Positions 29,704 through 47,845 of a DNA stretch of 64,000 bases are shown here, in pieces. The stretch lies in assembly GCF_001425355.1 (NCBI RefSeq), contig NZ_LMQN01000012.1:130589-194588 (forward strand). The letters run 5' to 3'. This stretch comes from Chryseobacterium sp. Leaf405 (lineage in GTDB: Bacteria > Bacteroidota > Bacteroidia > Flavobacteriales > Weeksellaceae). Within the stretch, counting starts at the first letter, position 1. Each line of letters opens with the position of its first letter. Below the pieces are notes generated by a model. The model was given only the letters and a program-made list of their open reading frames with translations, was not told the origin of the DNA and searched no databases. Both the position numbers and the translations under genes were made by a program.

Positions 29704-30012
29704 ATGAAAGATACTCTTAAATTAATAGGATTGGCAGTAGTTTCCATGGGAGCCGTAGCCAGAAGCTGTGTGAAAACAGGCGCAAGAGTTGCGGAATTTT
29801 CTGAACCGATGCTTATGGAAACACGTTATATGAAAAACGCAGGGACATTAGAAAGAGAAGGAGTAACGGCAACTGATGCATTGAAAGGTTTGAAAACAAC
29901 GAAAGATGCAGTTGATATTACGGATGCAGTAGGAAAATTAAATGAAATTAATGAAAAAGACACAATCAAAAATGTTAAACAAAAGAAAGCCAAAAAAAGA
30001 ATGAAAAGGTAG
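29704..30012 (+). CDS. Hypothetical protein, 102 residues
   Basis: Not recognised. It has a mildly hydrophobic N-terminus (LKLIGLAVVSMGAVARS), a middle region with EGVTATDALKGLKTTKDAVDITDAVGKL, and a strongly basic C-terminus (KNVKQKKAKKRMKR). There is no convincing signal cleavage site. The basic tail would suit RNA binding, given the tRNA-like array 44 bases upstream and the RNase-H-fold gene 23 bases downstream, but that is inference. Confidence 0.6.
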   Translation: MKDTLKLIGLAVVSMGAVARSCVKTGARVAEFSEPMLMETRYMKNAGTLEREGVTATDALKGLKTTKDAVDITDAVGKLNEINEKDTIKNVKQKKAKKRMKR

Positions 30013-30035
30013 CTTTCACTAAAACACTTGAAAAA

Positions 30036-30521: not shown

Positions 30522-30522
30522 T

Positions 30523-30573
30523 AAAGCTGGAACTGGAAGGTTTTTAGCATTATGAATATTAACTTCCAGCTTC
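30523..30573 (+). terminator. Hairpin after the YkuK-type gene
   Basis: AAAGCTGGAA pairs with TTCCAGCTTC about 30 bases on, but no clear T run follows. It may be a weak terminator or processing site. Confidence 0.4.
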
Positions 30574-30609
30574 AATCCAAAAAATAGAAACCTTAAAAAA
30601 CAAGTAACC

Positions 30610-31386
30610 ATGTATTTTTTAATTCAAGCTAATGTGTATTTAGATCCCGATCATTACAAAATTTTTGATGCTTTGGAAGAATTAAGTATTGATTACAGCG
30701 TAATTAATATTTCTCCAACTGCTGAAAAAATCGACTTCGAAACAGAGCGAAAAGATGTTTTCGTCTATGGTTCAGTGACGATTGCAAGATTGGCAAAACA
30801 AAATATCGATTGGTCTCCCGGTTCTTTTTACGGAGGTAATCATTTGTATGAAGTGTATTCCAAATATTATGTTGAAAACCTTTTGAATCATAAAGTTTCC
30901 ATACACAAAATTTCAGATGAATTGATTTGGAAGAAGGATGAATTAAAATTCATTAAACCTTACAATGAAGCGAAAATTTTTACAGGAAAAGTTTTCAATG
31001 AAACAGAATGGAAAGATTTTGTTTTTGAAGCCTTGGAAAATCAGGTTAACAGAATTAATGAAGATTCTTTAGTTCAGATTTCAGAAGCAAAGCGAACAGT
31101 AAAAGAAGCTAGAATATGGATTGTTGGCGGACAAATTATCGATGCAGGATATTATAAATTTAATGATAATGCTCCTTTCGAAGAAAATGTTTCACAAGAC
31201 GGATTGAATTTTGCCAATGAAATGATTCAACTTTTTAATCTTGAAGAAGCTTTTGTAATGGATATTTGTTTAACCGATGAAGGCTGGAAAATTGTTGAAA
31301 TCAACTGTATCAACAGTTCAGGATTTTATCCAAATACAAACGTGAAAAGTATTATCAAAGCTTTGAATATTTACTTTTCCAATTAA
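30610..31386 (+). CDS. ATP-grasp domain protein, R2K clade
   Basis: A 258-residue ATP-grasp enzyme of the type described as R2K clade (formerly DUF4343). It has a divergent N-terminal pre-ATP-grasp domain (VYGSVTIARLAK, SPGSFYGGNHLYEVYSKYY) and a C-terminal ATP-grasp with AFVMDICLTDEGWKIVEINCINSSGFY. The E-x-N magnesium ligands are seen in VEINC. ATP-grasp enzymes join a carboxylate to an amine or thiol. In Aravind-group surveys, R2K members are linked to peptide tagging and to RNA-repair loci. It is 12 bases before the cREC gene, and the three genes to 32364 form an operon. Confidence 0.8.
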   Translation: MYFLIQANVYLDPDHYKIFDALEELSIDYSVINISPTAEKIDFETERKDVFVYGSVTIARLAKQNIDWSPGSFYGGNHLYEVYSKYYVENLLNHKVSIHKISDELIWKKDELKFIKPYNEAKIFTGKVFNETEWKDFVFEALENQVNRINEDSLVQISEAKRTVKEARIWIVGGQIIDAGYYKFNDNAPFEENVSQDGLNFANEMIQLFNLEEAFVMDICLTDEGWKIVEINCINSSGFYPNTNVKSIIKALNIYFSN

Positions 31387-31398
31387 AAAATTAAAGCA

Positions 31399-31770
31399 AT
31401 GGAACTTACAAAAAGGTTATTGTTTCTGGATGATATTAGATATCCGATTGAAGTATATCATTATATCAAACAGGAGATTTTCCTCAGAAAAGACTGGCAT
31501 ATCGTTCGGAATTACGAGCAGTTTGTCAACAGAATTTTGGAAAAAGGATTTCCCGAAATGATCTCTTTTGACCACGACCTTGCCGATGAACATTATTTAG
31601 AACCGAATTCTCAGGAATTTGTCGAAAAGACAGGCTACGATTGTGCGAAATGGCTGGTAAAATATTGTATGAATAACTATTTAGACTTACCAAAATTCTA
31701 TTGTCATTCAATGAATCCGGTTGGAAAGCAAAATATTGAAAGCCTTTTAAGGAATTTTAAAAACTACTAA
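31399..31770 (+). CDS. Cyclic-phosphate-processing receiver-like domain (cREC)
   Basis: A 123-residue single-domain protein with a receiver-like fold pattern: RLLFLDDIRYPIE at the start, EMISFDHDLADEHY, KTGYDCAKWLV, and FYCHSMNPVGKQNIESLL. The D-D-x-R, FDHDL and HSxNPxGxxNI motifs match the 'cyclic-phosphate processing receiver' family that Burroughs and Aravind (2016) proposed acts on 2',3'-cyclic phosphate ends in RNA repair. It sits 3 bases before the RNA ligase gene, as expected if it prepares ends for ligation. The biochemical role is prediction from the literature. Confidence 0.82.
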   Translation: MELTKRLLFLDDIRYPIEVYHYIKQEIFLRKDWHIVRNYEQFVNRILEKGFPEMISFDHDLADEHYLEPNSQEFVEKTGYDCAKWLVKYCMNNYLDLPKFYCHSMNPVGKQNIESLLRNFKNY

Positions 31771-31773
31771 AAA

Positions 31774-32364
31774 ATGAAAAAAATAAGTACATTATTCAAA
31801 AAAGATATAAATAATTTAGGAAGAGTTATTAACGAAATTAATCCTGAAAACAACTGGGTTTTTGATGGGAAAGCGATTGCTACACAAAAGTTTGATGGTT
31901 CTGCATGTGCAGTGATCAACGGTAAATTATTCAAAAGATACGATGCGAAGAAAGGAAAAACAGCTCCTGTAGGTGCAATTCCATGTCAGGAAGCAGATCT
32001 TATGACCGGTCATCATCCGCATTGGGTAGCGTGTAATATTGATAAAAAAGAAGATCAATACTTTTGGGAAGGCTTCAACGCTTTGGCTGAATTGGGTAAG
32101 GTGGAAGATGGAACGTACGAGCTCATTGGTGAGAAAATACAAGGAAATCCTGAAAATATCAAAGGTCATTTATTGGTAAAACATGGAAATAATATTCTTA
32201 GTTTAGAGAGTTTGGATTTTGAATGGATCAAAAACTTTTTGAGCAATCCTGAGAATAATATGGAAGGTATCGTTTTCCATCATATTGCTGACAACCGTAT
32301 GTGTAAGATCAGAAAATCTGACTTTGGTGTACGTAGAAAATCAGCAAAAGAAGGTATTGTTTAA
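31774..32364 (+). CDS. RNA ligase, DUF5565-type
   Basis: A 196-residue compact nucleotidyltransferase. The ligase motif I is KFDGSA with the adenylated Lys39. Downstream elements GTYELIGEKIQG (motif III/IIIa region), EGIVFHHI (motif IV), and CKIRKSDFG (motif V, Lys/Arg) are in order. The length is about that of a bare catalytic core, without OB-fold or C-terminal domain. It resembles the DUF5565 RNA ligase group named in RNA-repair surveys. It is coupled to cREC (3 bases) and ATP-grasp, and a terminator follows. It probably seals broken tRNA or other RNA. Confidence 0.83.
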   Translation: MKKISTLFKKDINNLGRVINEINPENNWVFDGKAIATQKFDGSACAVINGKLFKRYDAKKGKTAPVGAIPCQEADLMTGHHPHWVACNIDKKEDQYFWEGFNALAELGKVEDGTYELIGEKIQGNPENIKGHLLVKHGNNILSLESLDFEWIKNFLSNPENNMEGIVFHHIADNRMCKIRKSDFGVRRKSAKEGIV

Positions 32365-32373
32365 AATAAAGAT

Positions 32374-32405
32374 TAAGTTTCGGTAATTTATTATCGAAAC
32401 TTTTT
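32374..32405 (+). terminator. Terminator after the RNA ligase gene
   Basis: AAGTTTCGGTAA pairs with TTATCGAAACTT, then T4. It ends the ATP-grasp/cREC/ligase operon. Confidence 0.8.
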
Positions 32406-32503
32406 ACGTGTTAAATTGAACCACATAATTTTATATTGAGTTTGTCATTCGGTAAGAATCTTAGTATCAAAAATAGAAAGTGGTTAATAAAAAATTAGAA
32501 AAA

Positions 32504-33448
32504 ATGTTACAAGCAGAAATAAAAAGTCTTTTGAAAGAAGACATCAGTATATTAATAAAAGTACCCAACTCGGCAAAGCATTATCTGTGTGATTGCGGGG
32601 AAGCGAGTTTGTTGACGGTGAAAGAAGTTCAAGCTGTTTCGGCGGTATTCATCAGTCATACTCATATTGATCATTTTTCAAATTTTGATGGAATTTTCAG
32701 ACATCAGATCGGAAGCGGAGATAAAATTGTGATTTGTGGACCGAAAAATATTTATCAACAAGTTGAAGCAAGATTAAAATCTTACACTTGGAATTTAATT
32801 GATGAGAATGCGATTGAATACGAAATCAGAGAAATTGTTTCAAAAGAAGAAATCAATGTGTATAAACTTCTTCCGCCATATTGGAATATTGAATTCATTA
32901 AAACTCAAAATTTTCTTTTTGAAGACGAATATGTGAATGTTGACTTTGCGATTTTGGATCATAAAACAGATTCTATCGCTTATTTATTCAAAGAAAAAGA
33001 TACAGTAACTTTCAATGAAAACGGTTCGGAATTCAAAAAAGGAAAATGGATCAGCGAGTTGAAAACAGCTTTTGAAAATAATGATTCCGACAAAGAAATT
33101 GAGGTTGAAGGAACGATTTACAAAGCTGCAGATTTATTTCATTTATTGACAAAAAATGCAGGCTATAAATTAGGAATCATTATGGATCATGCCGTTTGTG
33201 AAGACAATTATGAAAAGATAAAAACAGTTTTCAAAAAAGCGGATATGATGTATATCGAGACGTTTTATAAAGATGAAGATCAGGAATTTGCAAAAATAAA
33301 TTATCACAGTTATGCCTCTGCATCGGGGAAAATAATGAATGAATGTAATGTGAAAGAGGCAATACCGATTCACTTTTCAAGAAGATATGTGGAAAGTGAT
33401 AAACTGGAAATTGAAACGGCTTTTTATAAAGCATTTCAGGGAAATTAA
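32504..33448 (+). CDS. Metallo-beta-lactamase-fold hydrolase (RNase Z-like)
   Basis: A 314-residue MBL-fold protein. The metal-binding HxHxDH is in AVFISHTHIDHFSNFDG near residue 60, with GIIMDHAVCEDNY and a late His in AIPIHFSRRYV completing the usual set. The pattern, with a leading CDCGEASL strand, resembles the tRNase Z/RNase Z side of the family. A role in RNA 3'-end trimming fits the neighbourhood. The ORF can begin at GTG 32480, but ATG 32504 is preferred. It has its own leader after the ligase terminator. Confidence 0.8.
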   Translation: MLQAEIKSLLKEDISILIKVPNSAKHYLCDCGEASLLTVKEVQAVSAVFISHTHIDHFSNFDGIFRHQIGSGDKIVICGPKNIYQQVEARLKSYTWNLIDENAIEYEIREIVSKEEINVYKLLPPYWNIEFIKTQNFLFEDEYVNVDFAILDHKTDSIAYLFKEKDTVTFNENGSEFKKGKWISELKTAFENNDSDKEIEVEGTIYKAADLFHLLTKNAGYKLGIIMDHAVCEDNYEKIKTVFKKADMMYIETFYKDEDQEFAKINYHSYASASGKIMNECNVKEAIPIHFSRRYVESDKLEIETAFYKAFQGN

Positions 33449-33479
33449 ATTAAAAATCAACAGTGAAAGTTACCTGAGA

Positions 33480-33583
33480 TTTTAACACTTAAGTTTTTGA
33501 AAATCTTTGATTTTCTTCTGATGTGAACTAAATGTTTTCAAACTATTAAACTTTAAAAACTAATATGTTCTTAAGTGTTAAAA
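33480..33583. repeat. Long hairpin between the MBL and phosphoesterase genes
   Basis: TTTTAACACTTAAG at 33480-33493 is perfectly inverted at 33570-33583 (14 bp). Inner TTTTTGAAAA and TTTTCAAA segments can extend the stem. It could be a processed RNA, an attenuator or a bidirectional terminator. Confidence 0.5.
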
Positions 33584-33624
33584 AAATCTTTTGCGATTAA
33601 ATAACAATTATTAAAACAAAAAAA

Positions 33625-34188
33625 ATGAAGCCAAACATATTTTTTACAGCAGACCACCATTTTGGTCATGAAAATATTATAAAATTCTCCGAAAGACCTT
33701 TTGAGTCTTTGGAACAGATGAATGAAGAACTCATCAAAAGATGGAATGAAAGAATCGGCAAGGACGATACTGTTTACTATTTGGGCGATATGAGTTTAGG
33801 CAAACCTGATTTCACGAAAGAAATTTTAGATCGATTAAACGGAAATATCCATTTAATAAAAGGAAATCATGAAGGTGCGGCATTGACTTATCCTAAACGA
33901 TTTGCTTCGATCAGAGATTATCATGAATTGAGAATCGATGAACATGAAAATAGTAATGGCAAACAAAAAATCATTCTTTTTCATTACGCCATGAGAACCT
34001 GGAACGGTTCGCATCGAGGAGTTTGGCAGCTCTACGGACATTCGCACGGTACTTTGTCCGATGACGAAATGGCTCTAAGCATCGATGTCGGAGTAGATTG
34101 TCACAATTTTTATCCGGTTTCTTACGAAGAAGTGAAGGATTTGATGAAAAAGAAAAAATGGACGCCGCCGTTTGCGCCAAGAAATTAA
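33625..34188 (+). CDS. Calcineurin-like metallophosphoesterase
   Basis: A 187-residue single-domain metallophosphoesterase. All core motifs are present: FTADHHFGHENI (D-x-H), YYLGDMSLG (GD), IKGNHEG (GNH[DE]), ILFHYAMRTW and YGHSHGTLS. Members of this short clade remove phosphates from varied substrates, and similar proteins occur in RNA-repair and phage contexts. Here it may process 2'- or 3'-phosphate ends made by RNA cleavage. That is inferred from neighbours. It is followed 48 bases later by the exonuclease pair. Confidence 0.87.
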   Translation: MKPNIFFTADHHFGHENIIKFSERPFESLEQMNEELIKRWNERIGKDDTVYYLGDMSLGKPDFTKEILDRLNGNIHLIKGNHEGAALTYPKRFASIRDYHELRIDEHENSNGKQKIILFHYAMRTWNGSHRGVWQLYGHSHGTLSDDEMALSIDVGVDCHNFYPVSYEEVKDLMKKKKWTPPFAPRN

Positions 34189-34236
34189 TTGAGTGATATA
34201 TTTTGAAAATCATTCATCAATTAATGTAAACAAATT

Positions 34237-34782
34237 ATGAAAACAACAAACAAGATATTAGTCGTCGATATAGAAGCCACCTGTTGGGAAAATGACAGAA
34301 TTCCTATCGGTCAAAAAGTCGACATTATAGAAATAGGAATTTGCGAACTGGATAGGGCAACCAACGAAATATCCAATAAACAAAGCATCTATGTAATCCC
34401 TGAAAGATCGAAAATAAGCAGATTCTGTACAGATCTTACAGGAATTACGCCGCGACTGATTAAAGAAAAAGGAATTCATTTTGAAGAAGCCTGTGAAAAA
34501 ATTAGAGATGAATATGACTCGTCTTCTCTTATTTGGGCCGGTTTTGGGGAATTCGATAAAGAACAGATCATGCAGCAGTGTGATTATTTCGGAATCGAAA
34601 ATCCTTTCTCGGAAAATTACCTGAATATTATGAATCAATTCAAACATTATAATGGACTTCATAAAATGATGGGTTTAAAAAGAGCGTTGAAATTCCTGAA
34701 TATGGATTTTGAAGGAAATCATCACAGCGGAGCAGACGATGCTTACAATGCCGCCAAAATTTTAAGGGAGATTTTGCGGTAA
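34237..34782 (+). CDS. DEDDh 3'-5' exonuclease (ERI-1/KapD-like), copy 1
   Basis: A 181-residue single-domain exonuclease of the DEDDh class. Motif I is VVDIEATCWEN. The exo II Asp region is ASLIWAG-like (SSLIWAGFGEFDKEQI), and exo III is HHSGADDAYNAAKI with catalytic His and Asp. The TCW after DIEA and the FCTDLTGITPRLI segment point to the ERI-1-like, RNA-acting branch rather than DNA polymerase proofreading. A paralogue follows 27 bases downstream, so the pair probably arose by tandem duplication. Confidence 0.88.
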   Translation: MKTTNKILVVDIEATCWENDRIPIGQKVDIIEIGICELDRATNEISNKQSIYVIPERSKISRFCTDLTGITPRLIKEKGIHFEEACEKIRDEYDSSSLIWAGFGEFDKEQIMQQCDYFGIENPFSENYLNIMNQFKHYNGLHKMMGLKRALKFLNMDFEGNHHSGADDAYNAAKILREILR

Positions 34783-34809
34783 ATTACTAACAATAAACAA
34801 TTTAAAGAA

Positions 34810-35358
34810 GTGAAAACAACAGACAATATATTAATTATAGACCTCGAAGCTACGTGTTGGGATGACCACCCGCCAAGAGGTCAGGAAAGTGAAATCATAG
34901 AAATCGGAGTTTGTATTATGGATGCAAAAACCGGTAAGATTTCCAAAAATGAAGGAATTTTGGTGAAACCTCAATACTCGAAAGTGAGTCCGTTTTGTAC
35001 GGAGCTGACCTCCATTACGCAACAAATGCTTGATGAAGAAGGGATTTTGCTGGAAGATGCATTAGATATTCTCAGAGCGGAATATGATTCTGAAGACCTG
35101 ACTTGGGCGAGTTACGGAAACTACGATCTAAATATGCTTCAAAATCAGGCGAGAAGATTTAATATCGATTATCCTTTGAGTGATGATCATATTAATGTGA
35201 AAACGTTATTCGGGCAAATGCATCCGACTGTTCGTAAAAGTGTTGGCATGGCAAGAGCTTTAGGCGAACTGAATTTTACGCTTGAAGGCACGCATCACAG
35301 AGGTGTAGATGATGCTAAAAATATTGCAAAAATTTTGCATTGGTGCTTACAACAATAA
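34810..35358 (+). CDS. DEDDh 3'-5' exonuclease, copy 2
   Basis: A 182-residue paralogue of the preceding gene, with the same motifs: IIDLEATCWDD, FCTELTSITQQML, LTWASYGNYDLN, HHRGVDDAKNIAKI. It starts at GTG (34810). The start is supported because it aligns with the N-terminus of copy 1 (MKTTDNI against MKTTNKI). All four acidic positions and the His are kept in both copies, so neither looks decayed. They may differ in substrate. Both lie upstream of the Ro60 gene, and 3'-5' exonucleases (RNase PH, RNase II, PNPase) are known partners of bacterial Ro. Confidence 0.87.
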   Translation: MKTTDNILIIDLEATCWDDHPPRGQESEIIEIGVCIMDAKTGKISKNEGILVKPQYSKVSPFCTELTSITQQMLDEEGILLEDALDILRAEYDSEDLTWASYGNYDLNMLQNQARRFNIDYPLSDDHINVKTLFGQMHPTVRKSVGMARALGELNFTLEGTHHRGVDDAKNIAKILHWCLQQ

Positions 35359-35391
35359 TGTAACGATTTAGTAATCTGAAATATGACAATG

Positions 35392-35417
35392 ACTCCCTTT
35401 CAATAAGGGAGTTTTTT
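35392..35417. terminator. Terminator shared by the exonuclease and VOC genes
   Basis: ACTCCCTT pairs with AAGGGAGT, followed by TTTTT on the + strand. It overlaps the 3' end of the convergent VOC gene. Confidence 0.8.
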
Positions 35418-35861
35418 ATTTTTCTTCAGCCATTCTTCATAGGAAAGTACACCCAATTCAGGTTTTCCTTCGCCTTCTAAAATTGAGATGAATTCCAGTT
35501 GATTTCCATCAGGATCATTAAAATAAATCGCCAAGGCAGGCATCCATGCAAAAACCATGGGCTGAACTGATTCATTTTTAAGAAAATTGTAAGGCTTTAA
35601 GTTTTTATTTTTCAGAAAATCAACAGAATAATTCAGAATATCTTCTTTATCTGCTGTAAAGGCAAAATGTCTCGTCTGCAAATTTTCTTTCTGTTCCCAC
35701 AAACCTAACATGGATTCTTTATTTTTTCCGATCCATAGAAAAGCAATCGGGCGAGTTTCATCTTTATGAGCGAATTCCAATCCTAAAATTTCAGTGTAAA
35801 ATTGAATTGCATTTTCCAAGTTGCCTACCTGAACGTGAGTTTCATATAATCCTTTAATCAT
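35400..35861 (-). CDS. VOC-family (glyoxalase/bleomycin resistance-like) protein
   Basis: A 153-residue vicinal-oxygen-chelate protein with two beta-alpha-beta-beta-beta modules. The N-terminal YETHVQVGNLENAIQFYTEILGLEF carries the first metal His. IYFNDPDGNQLEFISIL holds the second-half Glu. TRHFAFTADKEDI gives another His. Metal-dependent activity is therefore possible, but the substrate (glyoxal, fosfomycin-like, aromatic) cannot be told. It is the only minus-strand gene within the RNA island and seems unrelated to it. Confidence 0.85.
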   Translation of the reverse strand: MIKGLYETHVQVGNLENAIQFYTEILGLEFAHKDETRPIAFLWIGKNKESMLGLWEQKENLQTRHFAFTADKEDILNYSVDFLKNKNLKPYNFLKNESVQPMVFAWMPALAIYFNDPDGNQLEFISILEGEGKPELGVLSYEEWLKKNKKLPY

Positions 35862-35987
35862 CGTTTAAAATTTTAATGAAACAAAACTATATAAAGGATT
35901 TTCAAAAACTCCCAATTCCCAATTCCTTTATATAAAATGAGTAATAGATAGATTTTATAGTTTGTTTAGAATCTATTTTTTATTAAT

Positions 35988-36226
35988 AAGGCTGTTTAAA
36001 CTTTCCCTGTTTCCTGTTTTAATTAAAACAGCTTGTTTAAACTAAAATGATTTTCTGATTTTGCTTAAACAGGTTGTTTCTACTTTCCCGGTTTTCTGTT
36101 TTAATTAAAACAGACTGTTCAGACTAAAATAGTTTTCTGATTTTGTTTAAATAGCTTGTTTCTACTTTCCCGGTTTTCTATTTTAATTAAAACAGACTGT
36201 TTAAACTAAAATGATTTTCTGATTTA
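35988..36226. repeat. Three tandem 82-bp repeats upstream of the Ro60 gene
   Basis: Three copies with a period of 82 bases (CTTTCCC at 36003 region, 36083 and 36165). Each holds the perfect palindrome CTGTTTTAATTAAAACAG or a one-base variant, and ACTAAAATGATTTTCTGATTT. There are no spacers of unrelated sequence, so it is not CRISPR. It may be a multi-site regulatory region or a repeated small RNA. Confidence 0.75.
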
Positions 36227-36294
36227 TTTATTTTACAGTATCATCTACTCCTTGAAATGACAAAAAAATAAAACTTTTTCATAAAAAATTCTGC

Positions 36295-36330
36295 TACGCA
36301 AAAACATTGCGTAAAAGCACACTTACTTTG
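36295..36330 (+). promoter_or_regulatory. TACGCA/TGCGTA operator and promoter of the Ro60 gene
   Basis: TACGCAA-N5-TTGCGTA is a perfect inverted repeat (36295-36313). CTTACTTTG, close to the -7 box consensus, ends at 36330, 59 bases before ATG 36390. The half site is shared with 17890, 38688 and 40405-40460. Confidence 0.6.
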
Positions 36331-36389
36331 TATAAGAAATGAGAGAGGAAGTGATAATCTTCCAAAATGTTTAACAAAAAACAGTAACC

Positions 36390-37907
36390 ATGAAATTTAA
36401 TTTTTTAAGAAAAGAAAATAAAGTAGTAATGAACTACGAAGGGGCAAAAGCATATACAATGACACCTGCAGAAGAACTATACAGTGCTGTTGTTACAACA
36501 GGATTATCAAACACTTCTTATGAAAAGGGAAATGACAGATTGAGGAGAATTCAAGCTCTTATTCAGAAAAACGATCCTGAGTTCGTTGCAAAATTGGCAG
36601 TTTATGCAAGAAAAGATATGTATTTACGCTCAATTCCGTTGGTTTTGACGACTGAATTGGCAAAGCAAACTTCAGGTACAGACTTGGTAAGCAGAACCGT
36701 TGACGGAGTTATTCAAAGAGCAGACGAAATCACAGAATTGTTGGCATATTACCAATTGGCAAACGAAAGAACAGATTTGAAAAAATTGAATAAACTTTCA
36801 AAACAAATCCAAAAAGGTCTGGTAAAATCTTTCAATAAATTTGATGAATACCAATTCGCAAAATACAACAGAAAAGCAGAAGTGACATTGAAAGATGCTT
36901 TGTTTTTGGTTCACCCGAAAGCAAAAGATGAAAATCAACAGGCTATTTTTAACAAAATCGTCAACGATTCATTGGAAGCTCCATATACTTGGGAAGTTGA
37001 GCTTTCAGTGTTGGGTCAGACAAAATTTGCCGACGATACAGAAAGAAAATCAGCTTTCAAAAGCAAATGGGAAGAATTGATTTTCAGCAACAAATTGGGT
37101 TATATGGCAACTTTACGAAACCTTAGAAATATTTTGGAAGCCAACGTTTCTTCAGATGCGATGTACAAAGTATGCAAGTATTTGGCGGATGAAAAAGCGG
37201 TAAGAAATTCAAAACAATTGCCATTCAGATTTTTGGCAGCGTATAGAGAATTGAAAAATATCGATTCAAAATATACTTCATCTATCTTGGAAGCGTTGGA
37301 AGATGCGGTGATGGTGAGTGCAAAAAATATCAAAGGTTTTGGTTTCGAAACTTCTGTGGTTATAGCGGCAGACGTTTCTGGTTCGATGCAGCAACCGGTT
37401 TCTCCGAAATCTAAAGTATTGTTGTATGATATTGGTTTGCTGATGTCGATGATGTTGCAGTCAAAATGTAAAAACGTGATTACAGGTATGTTCGGTGACA
37501 CTTGGAAAAGAGTTCCGATGCCTAAAAACGGTATTTTGAGAAATGTAGATGCATTTTACAAAAGAGAAGGCGAGGTGGGTTATGCTACAAACGGTCATCT
37601 GGTGATTGAAGATTTGATCAATAAAAAAGAAAAAGTAGATAAAATTATGTTGTTTACCGATACCCAAATGTGGGATACTGGCGGATTTTCAAATGCTTTC
37701 GGAAACTCATGGAACCGATATAAAAAGATTAATCCAAATGCAAAATTGTATATTTTTGATTTGGCTGGTTACGGAAAACAACCTTTGGATGTCAGAAAAA
37801 ATGATGTATATCTAATTGCAGGTTGGTCCGACAAAATCTTCGACGTACTGAATGCTTTGGAAGACCGAAAATCTGCTGTAGAAATGATTAAAAAAGTAGT
37901 GCTTTAA
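36390..37907 (+). CDS. rsr: TROVE/vWA protein, bacterial Ro60 (Rsr) orthologue
   Basis: A 505-residue Ro60-family ring protein. Residues ~15-310 form the TROVE HEAT-repeat ring (YSAVVTTGLSNTSYEKGNDRLRRI, VAKLAVYARKDMYLRSIPLVLTTELA). A C-terminal vWA domain follows, with an intact MIDAS DVSGSM at residues 328-333, MLFTDTQMWDTGG and a GW near the end. Ro binds Y RNAs on its outer surface and misfolded RNA ends in its cavity, and in bacteria it steers RNA to 3'-5' exonucleases. The length is close to Deinococcus Rsr. Downstream lie eight Y-RNA-like RNAs, which strongly supports the call. Note that rsr is the Deinococcus name. Confidence 0.95.
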   Translation: MKFNFLRKENKVVMNYEGAKAYTMTPAEELYSAVVTTGLSNTSYEKGNDRLRRIQALIQKNDPEFVAKLAVYARKDMYLRSIPLVLTTELAKQTSGTDLVSRTVDGVIQRADEITELLAYYQLANERTDLKKLNKLSKQIQKGLVKSFNKFDEYQFAKYNRKAEVTLKDALFLVHPKAKDENQQAIFNKIVNDSLEAPYTWEVELSVLGQTKFADDTERKSAFKSKWEELIFSNKLGYMATLRNLRNILEANVSSDAMYKVCKYLADEKAVRNSKQLPFRFLAAYRELKNIDSKYTSSILEALEDAVMVSAKNIKGFGFETSVVIAADVSGSMQQPVSPKSKVLLYDIGLLMSMMLQSKCKNVITGMFGDTWKRVPMPKNGILRNVDAFYKREGEVGYATNGHLVIEDLINKKEKVDKIMLFTDTQMWDTGGFSNAFGNSWNRYKKINPNAKLYIFDLAGYGKQPLDVRKNDVYLIAGWSDKIFDVLNALEDRKSAVEMIKKVVL

Positions 37908-37951
37908 AAGGCACTGCTTTTAAAATAAAACTAATAACCATTAATTTTTTT

Positions 37952-38041
37952 AGGAGCTATTTCCCGCTTTCCACTATATCTTTTTCGCCAACGCTTTTTC
38001 CAAGCCATTGCAGAAAAAGGATGTCGTTGCAATCGGGGCTA
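37952..38041. repeat. Dispersed intergenic element, copy 1
   Basis: GGAGCTATTTCCCGCTTTCC, TATATCTTTT, AAAAAGGATG and CAATCGGGGC occur in this order. A related element with TTTCCGGCTTTCACT and CAATCCGGGGC is at 62742-62840. It is probably a non-coding flavobacterial repeat that follows genes. Confidence 0.6.
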
Positions 38042-38058
38042 ATTTAAAATAACTAATT

Positions 38059-38511
38059 ATGAAAAATATAACTTTAGATTTTATAAAAGGAATTTTATAT
38101 ACATATGCAGACTTAAATACTCCAGATAGTAATTTATCTTATAAATATGAAATAATCGAAATGGAATTAGAAAAAGATGAATCTATTTTTTTAGAAAATC
38201 AATTTCAACTTCCAGAAGAATGCTTATTTACTATTGAAGATATTAACTTTGAAGAATTTCAAAAGTCTCTAAATAATTGGTTCTTTAAAAATGGTGAAAT
38301 TTCTAATTTACAAATCGATGAAAGAAGAGAAGATAATTATATCGAATTATTTTTCAATAACTTAAATGATTTGATATATATTAAAAATATTAAAACAGTG
38401 GAATTTAGCTATGCCAATGAAGCGTATTATGAATTAGGAATTTATTATGAATATTTTTTCATAGAAGGAGATAAGAATAAATATCTTGTCTATTTTAAAT
38501 ATGAAGATTAA
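38059..38511 (+). CDS. Hypothetical acidic protein, 150 residues
   Basis: Not recognised. Very acidic and aromatic, with many Ile, Asn, Tyr and Phe (NNWFFKNGEISNLQID, EFSYANEAYYELGIYYEYFF). There is no signal peptide or membrane helix. The gene is markedly AT-richer than the Ro60 gene, which suggests recent acquisition. The composition resembles immunity-type proteins of polymorphic toxin systems, but no toxin gene is adjacent. It sits between a dispersed repeat and the first Y-RNA-like RNA, whose 5' stem begins 2 bases after its stop. Confidence 0.62.
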   Translation: MKNITLDFIKGILYTYADLNTPDSNLSYKYEIIEMELEKDESIFLENQFQLPEECLFTIEDINFEEFQKSLNNWFFKNGEISNLQIDERREDNYIELFFNNLNDLIYIKNIKTVEFSYANEAYYELGIYYEYFFIEGDKNKYLVYFKYED

Positions 38512-38512
38512 T

Positions 38513-38590
38513 AAAACAAGCCGATGCCGTGAAAAGAAATCCTTCGAAATCTAATTGAATATGAGTCTTTTCGTCAGATTGCTCGGTTTT
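38513..38590 (+). ncRNA. Y-RNA-like RNA 1 (short form)
   Basis: The outer stem AAAACAAGCCGA/TCGGTTTT pairs with a bulge. Then come TGCCGT opposite TTGC, and inner stem GAAAAGA/TCTTTTC (7 bp) with CCTTCG just inside. There is no tRNA-like module. Same architecture as the seven copies that follow. Confidence 0.7.
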
Positions 38591-38672
38591 AACAATGTCG
38601 TATGTAAGAATTCCATCGTCAAACTTAAAATTTGAATATCAACAAACTCTTACAATTTATTACTTGGTTTTT
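38588..38672 (+). ncRNA. Y-RNA-like RNA 2 (short form)
   Basis: TGTCGTA is opposite TTAC. The inner stem is TGTAAGA/TCTTACA (7 bp), and the outer AACAA pairs with TTGGTT around a bulge. CATCG takes the place of CTTCG, and an inner TCAAA/TTTGA hairpin fills the loop. Confidence 0.6.
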
Positions 38673-38687
38673 AAAATAAATTTCAAC

Positions 38688-38723
38688 TGCGTAAAAAGAA
38701 TGCGCATTAAAGCAATAATTTTG
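38688..38723 (+). promoter_or_regulatory. Promoter/operator of the Y-RNA array
   Basis: TGCGTAAAAAGA, then TGCGCATT and TAATTTTG (38716-38723, a TAnnTTTG box). This is nearly identical to 17890-17925. It is 35 bases before Y-RNA-like RNA 3 and likely drives copies 3-8 as one precursor. Confidence 0.65.
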
Positions 38724-38757
38724 CTTTAACAAAAAACAATAACCATAAAAACTTAAA

Positions 38758-38892
38758 AAAGTAAGTGTCGTAAAACAGAATTTCTTCGTTAAGGGACAGC
38801 AATACAGGTTCGAATCCTGTTTCCGGACATTCGGAATGGCGTAAATGGTATCGCTCTGTGAGTAAGTCTCTGTTTGATTTTTACCTTACTTT
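38758..38892 (+). ncRNA. Y-RNA-like RNA 3 with permuted tRNA-like module
   Basis: Outer stem AAAGTAAG/CTTACTTT (8 bp), TGTCGT opposite TTAC, inner stem AAACAGA/TCTGTTT. Inside, in order: T arm ACAGG-TTCGAAT-CCTGT, capped acceptor TTCCG/CGGAA, D-like arm GGCGTAAATGGTATCGC. This is tRNA order permuted, with the Y stem in the anticodon position, as in YrlA RNAs. Confidence 0.8.
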
Positions 38893-38969
38893 AAAACAAT
38901 CGATGCCGTAAGAAAGAGTTACTTCGACTCCAAATTGTAAAGCCTCTTTCAAATTTTTTGCTCGGTTTT
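38893..38969 (+). ncRNA. Y-RNA-like RNA 4 (short form)
   Basis: Outer AAAACAATCGA/TCGGTTTT with a bulge, TGCCGT opposite TTGC, inner GAAAGAG/CTCTTTC (7 bp), TTACTTCG inside. It abuts copy 3 directly. No tRNA module. Confidence 0.72.
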
Positions 38970-38980
38970 AAAAAAATATA

Positions 38981-39126
38981 AAATAATCAAGTGTCGTTTT
39001 AGAATCATACTTCGATATTTAATCTTTGGGTCACAGGTTCGAATCCTGTCTTTTCTTCGGGAAAAGTAGCTCAGCTGGTAGAGCAAAAGCACTGAAAAGT
39101 ATTCTATATTTTTACCTTGATTTTAT
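38981..39126 (+). ncRNA. Y-RNA-like RNA 5 with permuted tRNA-like module
   Basis: Outer ATCAAG/CTTGAT, TGTCGT opposite TTAC, inner TAGAAT/ATTCTA. The module reads T arm ACAGG-TTCGAAT-CCTGT, capped acceptor CTTTTC-ttcgg-GAAAAG, then a canonical D arm AGCTCAGCTGGTAGAGC. Confidence 0.82.
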
Positions 39127-39127
39127 A

Positions 39128-39231
39128 ATAAAGAGTGTCGTAGTAAAGACTTACTTCTTGGTGTAATTTTGGTTCGAGTCCAAACAATCTTGCAAAAGAT
39201 TGGGAAGTCTTTCAATGAGTTACCTCTTTTT
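39128..39231 (+). ncRNA. Y-RNA-like RNA 6, T arm and acceptor only
   Basis: Outer AAAGAG/CTCTTT, TGTCGT opposite TTAC, inner AAAGACTT/AAGTCTTT (8 bp). Inside are T arm TTTGG-TTCGAGT-CCAAA and a CAATCTT-GCAA-AAGATTG hairpin in the acceptor position. A D arm is missing. Confidence 0.72.
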
Positions 39232-39242
39232 TAATTTAAATA

Positions 39243-39392
39243 AAAACAAGTGCCGTAGAAAAGTGTTACTTCGCTCATTACGACGGGGTCACGGGTTCGA
39301 GTCCCGTCTCTTCCACAAAGAAAACACAAATATATAGGAAGAGTAGCTCAGTTGGTTAGAGCACGACTAACTTTTGATTGTTGCCTTGTTTT
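39243..39392 (+). ncRNA. Y-RNA-like RNA 7 with full permuted tRNA
   Basis: Outer AAAACAAG/CTTGTTTT (8 bp), TGCCGT opposite TTGC, inner AAAAGT/ACTTTT. The module has T arm ACGGG-TTCGAGT-CCCGT, then the 3' acceptor CTCTTCC, a 21-nt linker, and 5' acceptor GGAAGAG (perfect 7 bp). The D arm AGCTCAGTTGGTTAGAGC follows. It is the clearest circularly permuted tRNA of the array. Confidence 0.85.
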
Positions 39393-39397
39393 ACCAT

Positions 39398-39535
39398 AAA
39401 AAGTGTCGTAGAGAAAAGATACTTCGTCACCATTTTAAGGGGAGGAATAATGAAGCAGGTAAATCTCTGCAAGATTATTCGGTTCGACTCCGGCAAGACG
39501 CTGCCCCGCTTTTCTTTTCTCGTTTTTACCTTTTT
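39398..39535 (+). ncRNA. Y-RNA-like RNA 8 with a variant module
   Basis: Outer AAAAAG/CTTTTT, TGTCGT opposite TTAC, inner AGAAAAG/CTTTTCT (7 bp). The insert differs from the others: GGGG...CCCC closes a GAATAAT/ATTATTC hairpin and a T-arm-like CGG-TTCGACT-CCG. It is the last copy before the terminator. Confidence 0.72.
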
Positions 39536-39543
39536 CAAATAAG

Positions 39544-39574
39544 AAGCCGATGAAATTATGTTCATCGGCTTTTA
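39544..39574 (+). terminator. Terminator of the Y-RNA array
   Basis: AAGCCGATGAA pairs with TTCATCGGCTT (11 bp perfect), followed by TTT. It lies 9 bases after the last Y-RNA-like unit. Confidence 0.85.
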
Positions 39575-39598
39575 TATTGTTGTCAATTAAGGAAATGA

Positions 39599-39940
39599 TT
39601 ATTTAACTTTTATGTCTTCTAATTCTTTTTCGAATAATTTTCTCCATTTAGCAATCGTCGTTCTGCTTATTTTATATTGTCGGGACATATAACTTGTAGA
39701 AAAATCATGCTTTTTTTGATATTGCAAAAGTTTAAGGATCGTTTTTTTATCGTACGTCTTCAACTGCTGATTGTTTCTGATACTTTCTTTTGATTGTTCA
39801 AAGATCAGATCATTAAAATTCAGAATTTCTTCCGTAGTTTTTAAACCATTCAGAAGTTTTTGGATTTTAGGATTTTCTAGCTTCTCAGGATGATCGTCTT
39901 TCAACATATCCTGATAGATTTTCTTATAATTAGGGCGCAT
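39599..39940 (-). CDS. HTH (transposase-like) DNA-binding protein
   Basis: A 113-residue protein with a C-terminal helix-turn-helix (LLQYQKKHDFSTSYMSRQYKISRTTIAKWRKLFEKEL) of the kind found in transposase OrfA proteins. The N-terminal half is helical and acidic. There is no DDE catalytic domain nearby and no terminal inverted repeats, so a mobile element is not supported. The start at 39940 (MRPNYKKIYQD) is preferred over 40021, which would overlap the upstream gene by 74 bases. It is 7 bases after that gene, so the two form an operon and probably act as a regulator pair. Confidence 0.75.
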   Translation of the reverse strand: MRPNYKKIYQDMLKDDHPEKLENPKIQKLLNGLKTTEEILNFNDLIFEQSKESIRNNQQLKTYDKKTILKLLQYQKKHDFSTSYMSRQYKISRTTIAKWRKLFEKELEDIKVK

Positions 39941-39947
39941 TTCGATT

Positions 39948-40373
39948 TTAATTTGGTTCGTTTTTTTGCAGCCAACGGTGAAGAGTACTCTTCGGAATAG
40001 AATATTCTTTGATGATTTCACTTTGCGTCATTTCACCCGAGTAAATCTTTTTCATAATAAAGTCCTTAATTTCCTGAGTATAAATGTTTTTTCTGAAATA
40101 AGGTATTTTATCAGATTTCGGCTGTGTGCTTTTGTTCACGGCAGAAGGCGGAGAATACAAAATTAGGTGTGAGCTGAAAAGTCTGAAAAAATCATATTCC
40201 AGTAATTTAGACCATCTTAGAAGAAGGTCAGTTTCTATAGATCTGCTTTTATAGGTGTTTTCAACAAATTCTTCATCTTTTTTAAGGAAATTGCAGATTC
40301 TCTCCATTGGAATTCCTAATTCCTCAACTTTTTCTTTTATGAAATTTCCTATATGAATTTCTTTATATAACAT
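39948..40373 (-). CDS. HTH DNA-binding protein, probable regulator of the Ro/Y-RNA island
   Basis: A 141-residue protein with two predicted DNA-binding parts. The N-terminal helical region is Cro-like (IGNFIKEKVEELGIPMERICNFLKKDEEFVENTYKS). A C-terminal transposase-type HTH follows (TQEIKDFIMKKIYSGEMTQSEIIKEYSIPKSTLHRWLQ). Similar pairs are common in Chryseobacterium as 'helix-turn-helix/transposase' genes. Here its own promoter region carries three or more TACGCA/TGCGTA half sites, the same element found before the Ro gene and the Y-RNA array. That suggests autoregulation and control of those targets (inference). Confidence 0.75.
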   Translation of the reverse strand: MLYKEIHIGNFIKEKVEELGIPMERICNFLKKDEEFVENTYKSRSIETDLLLRWSKLLEYDFFRLFSSHLILYSPPSAVNKSTQPKSDKIPYFRKNIYTQEIKDFIMKKIYSGEMTQSEIIKEYSIPKSTLHRWLQKNEPN

Positions 40374-40404
40374 TGTATTTAAATCTTAATGTCTGTTGTA
40401 ACAA

Positions 40405-40460
40405 TTTACGCACCGCAAAGTAATAATAAAACTAATTAGATTTAAAAATGCGTATTGCGT
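40405..40460 (-). promoter_or_regulatory. Promoter and TACGCA sites of the HTH gene pair
   Basis: On the minus strand TACGCA-A-TACGCA, then further downstream ATTACTTTGCGG and TGCGTAA, lead towards ATG 40373. At least three copies of the half site are visible. The remaining ~360 bases up to the SulP promoter are AT-rich with no gene seen. Confidence 0.55.
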
Positions 40461-40821
40461 ACAATAATTTTCAGTTCGTAATAATCAACTTTTATAAATA
40501 AAATGAGATCATTATCTCAGACTTATTTATGAACTTTTATTGAGTATAATAAAAATACCGTCTTTCAATTTTTCTCACAGAATATTTTTATATTTTCTGG
40601 CTTGTAAATAAGTTATGCGATACCTTATTTCTCTGAATTCAAATATAGAAAAAAATACATACGATTAATTATTATTGTAATATAAAATTTTAAAAATAAT
40701 GTTTTGTGGCTTACAAAATACTTTGTATAAAGGTTTTTGTATTAAAATAAAAATATAATAACTCCTTTTTTTATTGTTAAATTACAGAATAGAAAAAATC
40801 TGTAAAGAATTTCAAAGTCCA

Positions 40822-46346: not shown

Positions 46347-47012
46347 TTGAAAACAGATATAGACATCCACAAACACTCACATTTTTCTTTTGATTTGTGG
46401 CTTACTTTAATAAAATCTCATCCTGAATTTAAAGCAAAAAGAGTTGAGCTTTTTTCTTCGTTTTTTGAAGTGAATAAACCAATTGACGAAGTGGCGAAAG
46501 TCGTAAAATATTACGATGATCTTTGTAATAATATCAATGAAGTAATTGGAGGAAATGTGGATACTTTTGAGATCTATTTATTGATTTTAGGATCTTTAAA
46601 TGTTGACTTAAAAACTTTAAACAAAGATATTCTCAACCAGTTTTACCAAAAAAGTGAAGACTTGTTTTTAGAATATAAACCAGTTGTGATTTTCGAAAAT
46701 TTACATCAGTTTTTTGAAGAAATTAAAAATCAGGATAAGACCATCAATATTTTAAGCAATACAGGTTTTATCAAAGGAACGACGATGAGAAAATTTCTGA
46801 TTCAGGAAAATTTAGATCAGTATATTGATTTTCATATTTATTCTGATGAAATCAATTGTTCAAAACCTAATCCTCTTATTTTTCAGGAAGTTAAAAATAA
46901 AGTTAAACAAAATCTACAGCTCAGCCAGATTTTACACATCGGAGATAATCCGATTGCAGATTATAAAGGAGCAAAAGATTTTGGTTTCAGCGCACACCTA
47001 CTTACACACTAA
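46347..47012 (+). CDS. HAD-superfamily hydrolase of the Ter cluster
   Basis: A 221-residue haloacid-dehalogenase-fold phosphatase. Motif I is FSFDLWLTLIK (DxW/DxT position). Motif II is INILSNTG, and motif III/IV are CSKPNPLIF and ILHIGDNPIADYKGAKDFG. The start is TTG 46347, since no ATG fits before the conserved first strand. In the Ter-dependent systems described by Anantharaman, Iyer and Aravind, HAD and PRTase genes beside TerD form a predicted nucleoside-metabolite module. The next gene here is a PRTase, 8 bases on. Confidence 0.85.
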   Translation: MKTDIDIHKHSHFSFDLWLTLIKSHPEFKAKRVELFSSFFEVNKPIDEVAKVVKYYDDLCNNINEVIGGNVDTFEIYLLILGSLNVDLKTLNKDILNQFYQKSEDLFLEYKPVVIFENLHQFFEEIKNQDKTINILSNTGFIKGTTMRKFLIQENLDQYIDFHIYSDEINCSKPNPLIFQEVKNKVKQNLQLSQILHIGDNPIADYKGAKDFGFSAHLLTH

Positions 47013-47020
47013 ATATTAAT

Positions 47021-47845
47021 ATGAATAAAAGATACAGCTTACACCACATTCACTCGGCGGAAGAATTTACGTTTTCACCCGCTGAATACAGCTATTTCAA
47101 GTATGGAGATAAATTGTATGCAGAAAAATTTGCCAAAGAATTATTCGAAGGATTTGTTGCTCAGCACGAGGAAATTTTAAACACAGATAAAGAAATTGTG
47201 GTTCTGCCAAGTCCGTATATGGCAATTCCGACGGCTTCTAATTTTTTGTGCTTTTACTTCAAAAAACAATTGGATTTTTACCTGTTTCAAAAAGGAAAAA
47301 GATCCAGTATTTTATCTAAAATCAACAGAAATCATACTTATACGACAGATTACGGAAATTTAAGTTTTGAAGACCGTAAAAATCTGATCGCCAATGATAC
47401 CTATTATCTTGATAAAGATTTCTTAAAAGGAAAACTTTGTATTTTTATTGATGATATCAAGATCACAGGAAGTCATGAATTTACGGTAAATAAAATTCTT
47501 GACGAATACAATGTTCAGGCAGACTTTTTGTTCATGTACTACGCAGAACTGATGAATTTTGAACTCGATCCTAAGATTGAAAACTATTTTAATTACTATG
47601 CCGTAAAAAATGTTGAACACATTGTGGAGGTAATGATAAAGCCAAGTTTTCAGTTCAATACCAGGATTGTGAAATATATTTTAGGTTTAGATTCAGGTAA
47701 TTTTGAGTATCTTACGTCTAAAGTATCAAAAGAACATATGGATAATCTGCTGGAGCTTGCCATCAGCAATAATTATCACTTAATAAAAGATTACGAAAAT
47801 AACATTAACACTTTAACGCAAACAGAATTAAATTATGGCTATTAA
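47021..47845 (+). CDS. Phosphoribosyltransferase-family protein of the Ter cluster
   Basis: A 274-residue type I PRTase-like protein. The PRPP-binding signature is LCIFIDDIKITGSHEFTV (acidic pair plus TGSH) near residue 145. An upstream KEIVVLPSPYMAIPTASNFL strand-loop is present too. The C-terminal ~90 residues are helical and specific to the Ter-linked group. Its end overlaps terD by 11 bases. Together with the HAD protein it would make or salvage a phosphoribosylated compound, as predicted for Ter systems. No substrate is known. Confidence 0.82.
   Translation: MNKRYSLHHIHSAEEFTFSPAEYSYFKYGDKLYAEKFAKELFEGFVAQHEEILNTDKEIVVLPSPYMAIPTASNFLCFYFKKQLDFYLFQKGKRSSILSKINRNHTYTTDYGNLSFEDRKNLIANDTYYLDKDFLKGKLCIFIDDIKITGSHEFTVNKILDEYNVQADFLFMYYAELMNFELDPKIENYFNYYAVKNVEHIVEVMIKPSFQFNTRIVKYILGLDSGNFEYLTSKVSKEHMDNLLELAISNNYHLIKDYENNINTLTQTELNYGY

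What the first reader, a model, noticed from the sequence alone, without database searches (positions are those of the whole stretch)
38513..39535. Tandem array of eight Y-RNA-like ncRNAs downstream of a Ro60 gene
Seen: eight consecutive units in which the 5' and 3' ends pair (outer stem of 5-8 bp or more). Each has TGYCGT on the 5' side facing TTRC on the 3' side, then a 6-8 bp inner stem and, in most, an ACTTCG motif. The inner-stem sequences all differ but all pair. Position 3 covaries perfectly: TGTCGT with TTAC in five copies (38588, 38758, 38981, 39128, 39398), TGCCGT with TTGC in three (38513, 38893, 39243). That is direct evidence for selected RNA structure. Known: Ro60 proteins bind Y RNAs through such an end-closing stem. 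Most bacteria with Ro carry one or two Y RNAs, so an eight-member array is unusual.
Basis: partly seen in the sequence, partly recalled or inferred. Interest (0 to 1): 0.93.

Follow-up and report, generated by a model that had tools for sequence, protein, structure and literature searches.

The report
Ro60 Y-RNA array with mimic modules
Downstream of a Ro60 RNA-binding-protein gene, this Chryseobacterium-type genome carries a tandem row of eight small Y-type RNA genes that share one protein-docking stem but display different inserts, several looking like rearranged transfer RNAs and, in related species, like a piece of 23S ribosomal RNA.

Summary
In detail: eight stem-closed units at 38518-39535, + strand, with the TGYCGT/TTRC covariation in all eight; a strict scan of the 64 kb finds one weak hit elsewhere. 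The Y RNA reading is well supported. Of 80 named relatives, 78 have 2-13 scanned units downstream of Ro60; the two others end 186 and 1651 bp after it. Position 3 is a Watson-Crick pair in 472 of 552 units. A model of the last unit hits 76 of 82 genus genomes with Ro60 and 3 of 36 without a match. So eight units are normal here.

The units are one scaffold with different modules. In 140 units the T-arm and D-arm motifs both occur, always in permuted order, with sub-threshold Rfam YrlA matches. One class, absent from the window but present in 17 of 80 relatives, carries up to 33 nt identical to 23S rRNA.

Best explanation: a co-regulated, polycistronic set of Ro60-docking Y RNAs that present translation-RNA mimics as adaptors or baits in RNA surveillance. 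Expression, Ro60 binding and function are untested.

The parts
36390..37907 (+). Ro60 (TROVE + vWA_Ro60) gene, 505 aa
   Evidence: Pfam TROVE E 1.7e-29 and vWA_Ro60 9e-07; PDB 9l5y/9kop 'TROVE domain-containing protein' E 8e-29 and Ro60 1yvp E 0.002; 82 of 118 genus genomes have an orthologue at E <= 1e-100
36295..36330 (+). Inverted repeat TACGCA...TGCGTA followed by TTACTTTG (Bacteroidota -7 type, recalled): putative operator and promoter of Ro60
   Evidence: TGCGTA or TACGCA in the 250 nt upstream of Ro60 in 69 of 79 relatives against 3 of 79 and 0 of 79 in two control stretches; inverted repeat at 36294-36314 also listed
38518..38589 (+). Y RNA unit 1 (class 0, short, no tRNA module seen)
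   Evidence: 7-bp outer stem, C-G at position 3
38591..38669 (+). Y RNA unit 2 (short, by its look class 0; left out of the clustering by its score); outer stem interrupted
   Evidence: TGTCGT 38596 / TTAC 38660
38688..38723 (+). Leader with TGCGTA...ATGCGCAT and TAATTTTG: putative second operator and promoter inside the array
   Evidence: ACTGCGTAAAAAG found within 5.4 kb downstream of Ro60 in 48 of 80 relatives and in 0 of 80 upstream stretches; sequence
38758..38892 (+). Y RNA unit 3 (class 3, permuted tRNA-like module: T arm 38804-38820, acceptor-like hairpin, D-arm-like part)
38898..38967 (+). Y RNA unit 4 (class 0, short)
38985..39122 (+). Y RNA unit 5 (class 1, permuted tRNA module); Rfam YrlA 40.2 bits at 39025-39088, gathering score 69
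39130..39229 (+). Y RNA unit 6 (class 2, T-arm-like hairpin plus second hairpin)
39243..39392 (+). Y RNA unit 7 (class 1, permuted tRNA module); Rfam YrlA 37.2 bits at 39284-39365
   Evidence: two-sided changes in outer, T-like and acceptor-like stems over 35 aligned orthologues
39398..39535 (+). Y RNA unit 8 (class 4, GGGGAGGAATA module with a T-arm-like hairpin)
   Evidence: 13 of 33 pairs with two-sided change over 29 aligned orthologues including Flavobacterium
39542..39573 (+). Intrinsic terminator-like hairpin closing the array
   Evidence: 13-pair stem followed by a T run; 6 terminator-like sites in 36200-40600 (both strands) against a mean of 1.9 in shuffles
39599..40373 (-). Two overlapping genes for small HTH proteins, often found after the array; candidate regulators
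   Evidence: weak HTH matches; found in 51 and 49 of 80 relatives within the stretch held; TGCGTA-type sites upstream in the window

Best explanation
The locus encodes a Ro60 ribonucleoprotein whose RNA part is a library. One transcript (or two, starting before Ro60 and at the internal leader) runs through the tandem array to the terminator and is cut into eight Y RNAs. Each Y RNA folds its ends into a common docking stem: a 6-8 bp helix, one bulged U, two pairs including the covarying Y-R pair, then an asymmetric CGU loop. Ro60 binds this stem. The other end of each RNA shows a different module: a permuted tRNA body resembling one tRNA or another, a T-arm-like hairpin, or in some relatives a piece of 23S rRNA. 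The modules act as substrate mimics. They bring particular tRNA- or rRNA-handling enzymes (PNPase, modification or repair enzymes) to Ro60, or compete for nucleases that attack those RNAs, so that Ro60 surveillance is tuned to several translation RNAs at once. Shown here: the structures, their conservation, the mimicry in sequence, and the linkage to Ro60. Inferred: polycistronic transcription and processing, control by the TGCGTA sites and HTH proteins, Ro60 binding, and the adaptor or bait role.
For: Array linked to Ro60: 78 of 80 named loci have at least 2 scanned units; the 2 others have 186 and 1651 bp downstream. Co-occurrence: model R1 (unit 8) hits 76 of 82 genus genomes with Ro60 and 3 of 36 without a match, Fisher p 1e-19 with species counted as independent; six of the 76 have only weak best hits (E 1e-4 to 6e-4), so 70 of 82 at E < 1e-8; one of the 3 (G061) has a Ro60 cut by its contig end. 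Docking stem: position 3 Watson-Crick in 472 of 552 units against 2-23 of 552 when the partner is slid. Module structure: cells with two-sided change 33 vs 6.6 shuffled (unit 7 class), 64 vs 16.6 (unit 8 class), 28 vs 9.0 (23S class), reached by 0 of 500 shuffles each. Permuted order: 140 of 140 units with both motifs have T arm before D arm, in 76 of 80 loci. tRNA mimicry: YrlA sub-threshold matches in the window and 43 in 20 of 20 arrays scanned; the first non-self matches of a 1751-base part of the G013 array in its own genome are four 23S genes (E 2e-6), then tRNA genes. 23S mimicry: 33 nt identical, E 5e-10. Polycistronic layout: 325 of 466 gaps between units are 40 nt or less, median 10; terminator-like hairpin after the last unit. 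Precedent from passages read: YrlA is a DusA and TruB substrate, and Y RNA tethers the Ro60 orthologue to PNPase (PMC8394870; PMC4726728); YrlA suggested as competitive inhibitor of an anticodon nuclease (PMC7790460).
Against: No expression or binding data exist in these tools. YrlA scores stay below the curated threshold (best 41.1 vs 69). 48 of 552 scanned units are neither Watson-Crick nor wobble T-G at position 3, some of them probably chance hits of the scan. The inner helix as I drew it for unit 7 is poor (58.9% of cells paired). The number of further pair types does not exceed shuffles in the three structure tests (421, 204 and 78 of 500 shuffles at least as high), and the shuffles do not allow for relatedness. 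Three window units have no tRNA-like module that I can see, and unit 8's class matches no tRNA or rRNA tested. The RNA repair proteins are found near Ro60 in only 3-28 of 80 relatives within the 6 kb held, so the link to repair is weak.
Confidence: 0.72

Rival explanations
1. Decoy only: the array soaks up anticodon nucleases, rRNA-cleaving toxins or modification enzymes, and Ro60 merely stabilises or stores the decoys.
For: Different tRNA-like modules and a 23S piece would cover several targets. In the window an RNA repair cluster (cREC_REC, R2K ATP-grasp, RLIG1-like ligase) and extra tRNA genes lie about 1-8 kb upstream of Ro60. Hughes et al. 2020 propose YrlA as a competitive inhibitor (passage).
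Against: The permuted modules, as I read them, lack an anticodon loop, the usual nuclease target; the same paper found no YrlA cleavage (passage). The docking stem is kept across 78 loci, which a pure decoy would not need.
Confidence: 0.2
2. Ordinary multi-copy bacterial Y RNAs: the modules vary by drift, with one YrlA-type member doing the known job and the rest redundant.
For: tRNA-like Y RNAs bound by Ro60 orthologues are known (PMC8394870 passage; Chen 2014 recalled). Unit number varies between species.
Against: Classes recur across the genus, by eye in similar order. Stems of three classes show two-sided changes. The class-5 core ACGGYCCTAAGGTAGC is kept in 9 of 9 units grouped by overall similarity and, allowing C at its second base, in 16 of 17 long units of the 80 named loci. 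Drifting copies would hardly keep such features.
Confidence: 0.2
3. A graveyard of tRNA and rRNA fragments produced by recombination, not functional RNAs.
For: Degenerate tRNA-like genes also lie upstream (28339-29659).
Against: Conserved docking stem, compensatory changes, linkage and co-occurrence with Ro60. Where both motifs are found, T arm precedes D arm in 140 of 140 units.
Confidence: 0.03

Closest known systems
Bacterial Y RNAs / YrlA (Rfam RF02553; Salmonella YrlA, Deinococcus Y RNA)
   Same: Beside Ro60; 5' and 3' ends pair; T-arm, acceptor and D-arm in permuted order in several units; Rfam YrlA matches below threshold
   Different: Scores under the gathering threshold; tandem arrays of 2-13 units with several module classes, including units with no tRNA part seen, a 23S-like class, and lengths from about 67 to 230 nt
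Salmonella rsr-yrlBA-rtcBA RNA repair operon (PMC7790460, passages)
   Same: Ro60 and Y RNA genes; RNA repair genes nearby in the window
   Different: No RtcB, RtcA or RtcR match among the 20 window proteins scanned with Pfam; the repair genes are another set (cREC_REC, R2K ATP-grasp, RLIG1-like ligase) and not always close
Vertebrate Y RNAs (PMC4726728, passages)
   Same: Helix plus single bulged nucleotide near the Ro60 site; several Y RNAs with different loops
   Different: [quoted passage not shown] no Rfam Y_RNA match here at E up to 5

Membership tests
Bacterial Y RNA | Encoded next to a Ro60 orthologue | tested here: met
   Window; 78 of 80 relatives; co-occurrence 76 of 82 vs 3 of 36
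Bacterial Y RNA | 5' and 3' ends form a conserved basal stem | tested here: met
   Stem and covariation; that Ro60 binds it was not testable
Bacterial Y RNA | Length about 90-150 nt (PMC8394870 passage) | tested here: inconclusive
   Units 3, 5, 6, 7, 8 are 100-150 nt; units 1, 2, 4 are 70-79 nt; class-5 relatives 222-232 nt as scanned
Bacterial Y RNA | Stable transcript bound by Ro60 in cells | not testable with these tools
   No expression or binding data
Rfam YrlA RF02553 | Score at or above the curated gathering threshold (69 bits) | tested here: not met
   Best 40.2 bits in the window, 41.1 in relatives
Rfam YrlA RF02553 | tRNA-like domain with T arm, acceptor, D arm in permuted order | tested here: met
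   Alignment of unit 5 to model positions 23-85; T before D in 140 of 140 units with both motifs; acceptor-like and T-like stems covary
Rfam Y_RNA (vertebrate) | Match to the family model | tested here: not met
   No match at E up to 5 in 28000-40000
tRNA gene cluster | ARAGORN or over-threshold Rfam tRNA genes inside 38513-39535 | tested here: not met
   None from ARAGORN or over the Rfam threshold; one sub-threshold Rfam tRNA match at 39060-39192, 20.9 bits

The most novel reading that the evidence does not exclude
The array is a modular panel of Ro60-tethered mimics of the translation RNAs: several tRNA types and, in about a fifth of the relatives examined, the helix 69-71 region of 23S rRNA (helix names recalled). 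Y RNA mimicry would then not be limited to tRNA, and each module would direct Ro60 to, or shield from attack, a different RNA of the translation machinery.
Probability: 0.45. Interest if true: 0.87.

Novelty: new variant of a known kind. Interest (0 to 1): 0.74.

Why it matters
What Y RNAs do besides binding Ro60 is an open question. Here nature has run the comparison: one docking stem, many modules, kept in nearly 80 sequenced relatives. The 23S-like class is a concrete, testable link to rRNA; the reference lists of two papers seen in passages cite a role of the Deinococcus Ro60 orthologue in 23S rRNA maturation. The arrays offer a natural set of constructs to find out which enzyme each module recruits or traps. 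The covariation data also outline a putative Ro60 docking motif for this lineage from hundreds of units.

Tried and rejected
Other rRNA origins: ten other units of G013 aligned to its rRNA operon did not exceed the best of 15 shuffles each (two equalled it). The class-5 unit (taken from L169) did (77 vs 48), but its part beyond the 23S stretch did not (37 vs 45). Over 544 units, 15-mers shared with the rRNA operon fall only at the one 23S site (15 units) and at the spacer tRNA (10 units); shuffled units 0.4 of 544.

tRNA identity of each module was tested in one genome (G013) against 39 tRNA sequences, 34 of them from part of its 83 tRNA matches and 5 from the window. Class 1 is clear (Gly(gcc) 3' half 22 and Met(cat)/Asn 5' half 20-21, control maximum 12), class 6 fairly (Arg(tct) 3' half 19 vs 14), class 2 slightly (15 vs 12), the Glu-like D arm weakly (14 vs 13). 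Classes 0, 2b and 4 do not exceed their controls, so I claim no identity for them.

The invariance of the class-5 core in alignment A2 is partly by construction, because those 16 sequences were picked with a pattern of that core. I re-counted on sets picked without it: 9 of 9 (grouped by similarity) and, with the looser pattern, 16 of 17 long units; the exception, L173, has one change in the core.

Phage link: a viral-contig scan gave only two distant Ro60 relatives, 30-31% identical. Defence library: PADLOC matched 1 of 10 window proteins, a generic exonuclease model. Two unit-8 hits in genomes without a Ro60 orthologue match (G017, G085) sit beside glyoxalase, HTH and SulP homologues with no Ro60 in the stretch fetched, so they look like relics after Ro60 loss; G017 keeps only a distant Ro60 paralogue elsewhere.

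Literature: searches listed no paper whose title or abstract start describes Y RNA arrays in Chryseobacterium or a 23S-like Y RNA. The library holds open-licence papers only. The main papers (Chen 2014, Sim and Wolin 2018, Burroughs and Aravind 2016) are not held, so prior description there cannot be excluded. That several Y RNAs per species occur, at least one tRNA-like, is recalled from the Chen 2014 abstract.

Full report
What is there. Ro60 is at 36390-37907. A 150-aa gene without a Pfam match (38059-38511) separates it from the array. The array holds eight units on the + strand; their motif positions are, and every unit pairs position 3 as T-A (five) or C-G (three). The only other strict match in 64 kb is a 5-bp hit on the minus strand. 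Unit 2 has an interrupted outer helix. A terminator-like hairpin follows the last unit.

More than chance. In 28 downstream regions a scan that leaves position 3 and its partner free gave 205 hits, against 9.5 on average in 50 rounds of Markov shuffles, 8 in stretches upstream and 7 on the antisense strand. L032 gave none; its contig ends 198 bp after Ro60. In 80 named loci the scan gave 552 units in 78 loci: C-G 253, T-A 218, T-G 32, other combinations 49, one of them G-C. The partner slid by one or two bases gives 2-23 Watson-Crick cases of 552; part of that drop reflects the fixed neighbouring bases, so it illustrates and does not test alone. Among the Watson-Crick units, six orthologous groups of four or more contain both T-A and C-G forms, so the pair has switched within groups.

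Structure of the units. Alignments were tested with named structures. Unit 7 class, 35 sequences: 8 of 31 pairs have a two-sided change, 33 cells against 6.6 in shuffles, carried by the acceptor-like, T-like and outer stems; the inner helix as drawn is poorly supported. Unit 8 class, 29 sequences: 13 of 33 pairs, 64 cells against 16.6. The 23S-like class, 16 sequences: 10 of 61 pairs, 28 cells against 9.0 (structure taken from the same alignment, so it leans towards it). The count of further pair types does not exceed shuffles in any of the three, and the shuffles ignore relatedness. For units 7 and 8 I used 35 of 61 and 29 of 36 sequences found, the window included.

Modules. Clustering of units from 26 relatives and the window gave recurring classes: short units without a tRNA part (class 0, 55 units in 26 loci), permuted tRNA-like modules (class 1, 52 in 26; class 3, 26 in 21; class 6, 3 in 3), T-arm-like hairpins (class 2, 32 in 24), the GGGGAGGAATA module (class 4, 20 in 20), the 23S-like class (class 5, 9 in 9), and three singletons that are probably chance or cut hits. 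In the 80 named loci, 140 of 544 units carry both a T-arm and a D-arm motif, with the T arm first in 140 of 140, in 76 loci. Rfam YrlA matches two window units with 40.2 and 37.2 bits and gives 43 matches in 20 of 20 arrays scanned, 28.7-41.1 bits, all under the gathering score of 69. When 1751 bases of the G013 array are searched against its own genome, the first non-self matches are its four 23S genes (E 2e-6), then tRNA genes (E 0.001 to 0.04, with one other place among them).

The 23S-like class. In genome G027 a unit shares 33 identical bases with all four 23S genes (E 5e-10), inside the LSU rRNA matches; the same 33 bases occur in the window genome's 23S. Among the 80 named loci, 17 have such a unit by length and similarity; 16 of the 17 contain A[AC]GG[CT]CCTAAGGTAGC and L173 has one change in it. 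The alignment of the 16 was selected by that core, so its invariance there is partly by construction; in the nine units grouped without it, nine have it. The predicted fold includes a UCGU-AACUAUA-ACGG hairpin, which resembles helix 69 of 23S rRNA (helix names recalled). In 544 units the only 15-mers shared with the rRNA operon are at this site (15 units) and in the spacer tRNA D arm (10 units). The window's own array does not contain this class.

Linkage and spread. Of 118 genus genomes, 82 have the Ro60 orthologue and 79 match the unit-8 covariance model at E up to 0.001: 76 of the 82 and 3 of the 36 others. Six of the 76 have weak best hits only. Of the three, G061 has a Ro60 cut by its contig end; G017 and G085 keep glyoxalase, HTH and SulP homologues but no Ro60 in the stretch fetched. 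Outside the genus, one search found 22 genomes; I scanned 19 of them (G232 and G237 were not fetched, G413 was fetched but not scanned). By eye, 15 of the 19 have at least one plausible unit, up to six per locus; L275 and L281 gave none, and the single hits of L282 and L285 look like chance.

Control and transcription. Between scanned units the gap is 40 nt or less in 325 of 466 cases, which leaves little room for separate promoters there and suggests a long precursor that is cut. A TGCGTA or TACGCA hexamer stands before Ro60 in 69 of 79 relatives (controls 3 and 0 of 79), a related leader lies downstream of Ro60 in 48 of 80 and upstream in 0 of 80, and the same hexamers stand before the two HTH genes in the window. 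I infer that the HTH proteins control Ro60, array and themselves; this is not shown.

Surroundings. Upstream lie an RNase H-like protein, an R2K ATP-grasp, a cREC_REC cyclic-phosphate receiver, an RLIG1-like ligase, a metallo-beta-lactamase fold protein, a calcineurin-like phosphoesterase and two RNase_T exonucleases, and a row of tRNA and tRNA-like genes. Within the stretches held these proteins are found in 3-28 of 80 relatives. Other genes sit inside some arrays: a 279-aa protein with a weak SMI1_KNR4 match (E 0.015, below the cut-off), a DUF6584 protein (E 4e-46) and a 73-aa protein without match.

How it most likely works. The established part comes from passages read: bacterial Ro60 orthologues bind the Y RNA basal stem, the tRNA-like end of YrlA is modified by DusA and TruB, and in Deinococcus a Y RNA tethers Ro60 to PNPase (PMC8394870; PMC4726728); YrlA has been suggested to inhibit an anticodon nuclease (PMC7790460); a TROVE protein with a tRNA-like partner has been called a platform for RNA repair (PMC7824862). 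From the anatomy here I infer that the common stem is for Ro60 and the varied ends are for different partners. Adaptor and bait roles cannot be told apart with sequence alone.

Known or new. tRNA-mimicking Y RNAs with Ro60 are known. In the listings I could obtain I found no description of diversified arrays in this group or of a Y RNA carrying 23S sequence, but the key papers are not held. I therefore rate it a new variant of a known kind.

Noticed in passing
window 28725-28849 (tRNA-Pro(tgg)-like gene); L129, L130, L131, L172, L168:163 and 292, L187:4430; Y RNA units in L037, L134 and L160: A related insert of about 50 nt sits at the same T-loop position (after GTTCRA) in tRNA-like genes that by eye read Pro, Gln, Arg, Asp and a Glu/Arg type, and in class-1 Y RNA units of three genomes. 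Spliced intron and mobile mini-element are both open; two copies of a similar stretch outside tRNAs in G018 (L132, L154) hint at a mobile origin.
   Followed up: partly
L160, L168, L175, L176, L008 (class-6-type Y RNA units); L124:2048: A shorter T-loop insert (about 22 nt) in class-6-type units and in a degenerate tRNA-Arg-like stretch; the same sequence also occurs outside tRNAs (L172:3935), like a dispersed repeat.
   Followed up: partly
window 28339-29659; G013:C1:4031939-4034919: A row of divergent extra tRNA genes and tRNA-like genes upstream of the RNA repair cluster; G013 has such genes for about ten amino acids, several clearly different from its other copies. Might be a spare tRNA set.
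   Followed up: partly
L035 and L036, 3.2 and 4.1 kb before the Ro60 stop codon (about 1.7 and 2.6 kb upstream of its start): A separate permuted tRNA-like RNA with an 8-bp closing stem and without the Ro60 motif (read by eye).
   Followed up: no
window 37956-38044, minus strand: Flavo-1 RNA (RF01705, 63.6 bits) directly after Ro60; over threshold in 10 of 20 relatives' downstream stretches too.
   Followed up: no
window 20621-24854 and 46347-49477: MoxR-vWA-beta-propeller ternary system proteins (bpMoxR; bpX0 with bpX1) and a Ter-type cluster (HAD, PRTase_3, TerD, TelA) flank the region.
   Followed up: no
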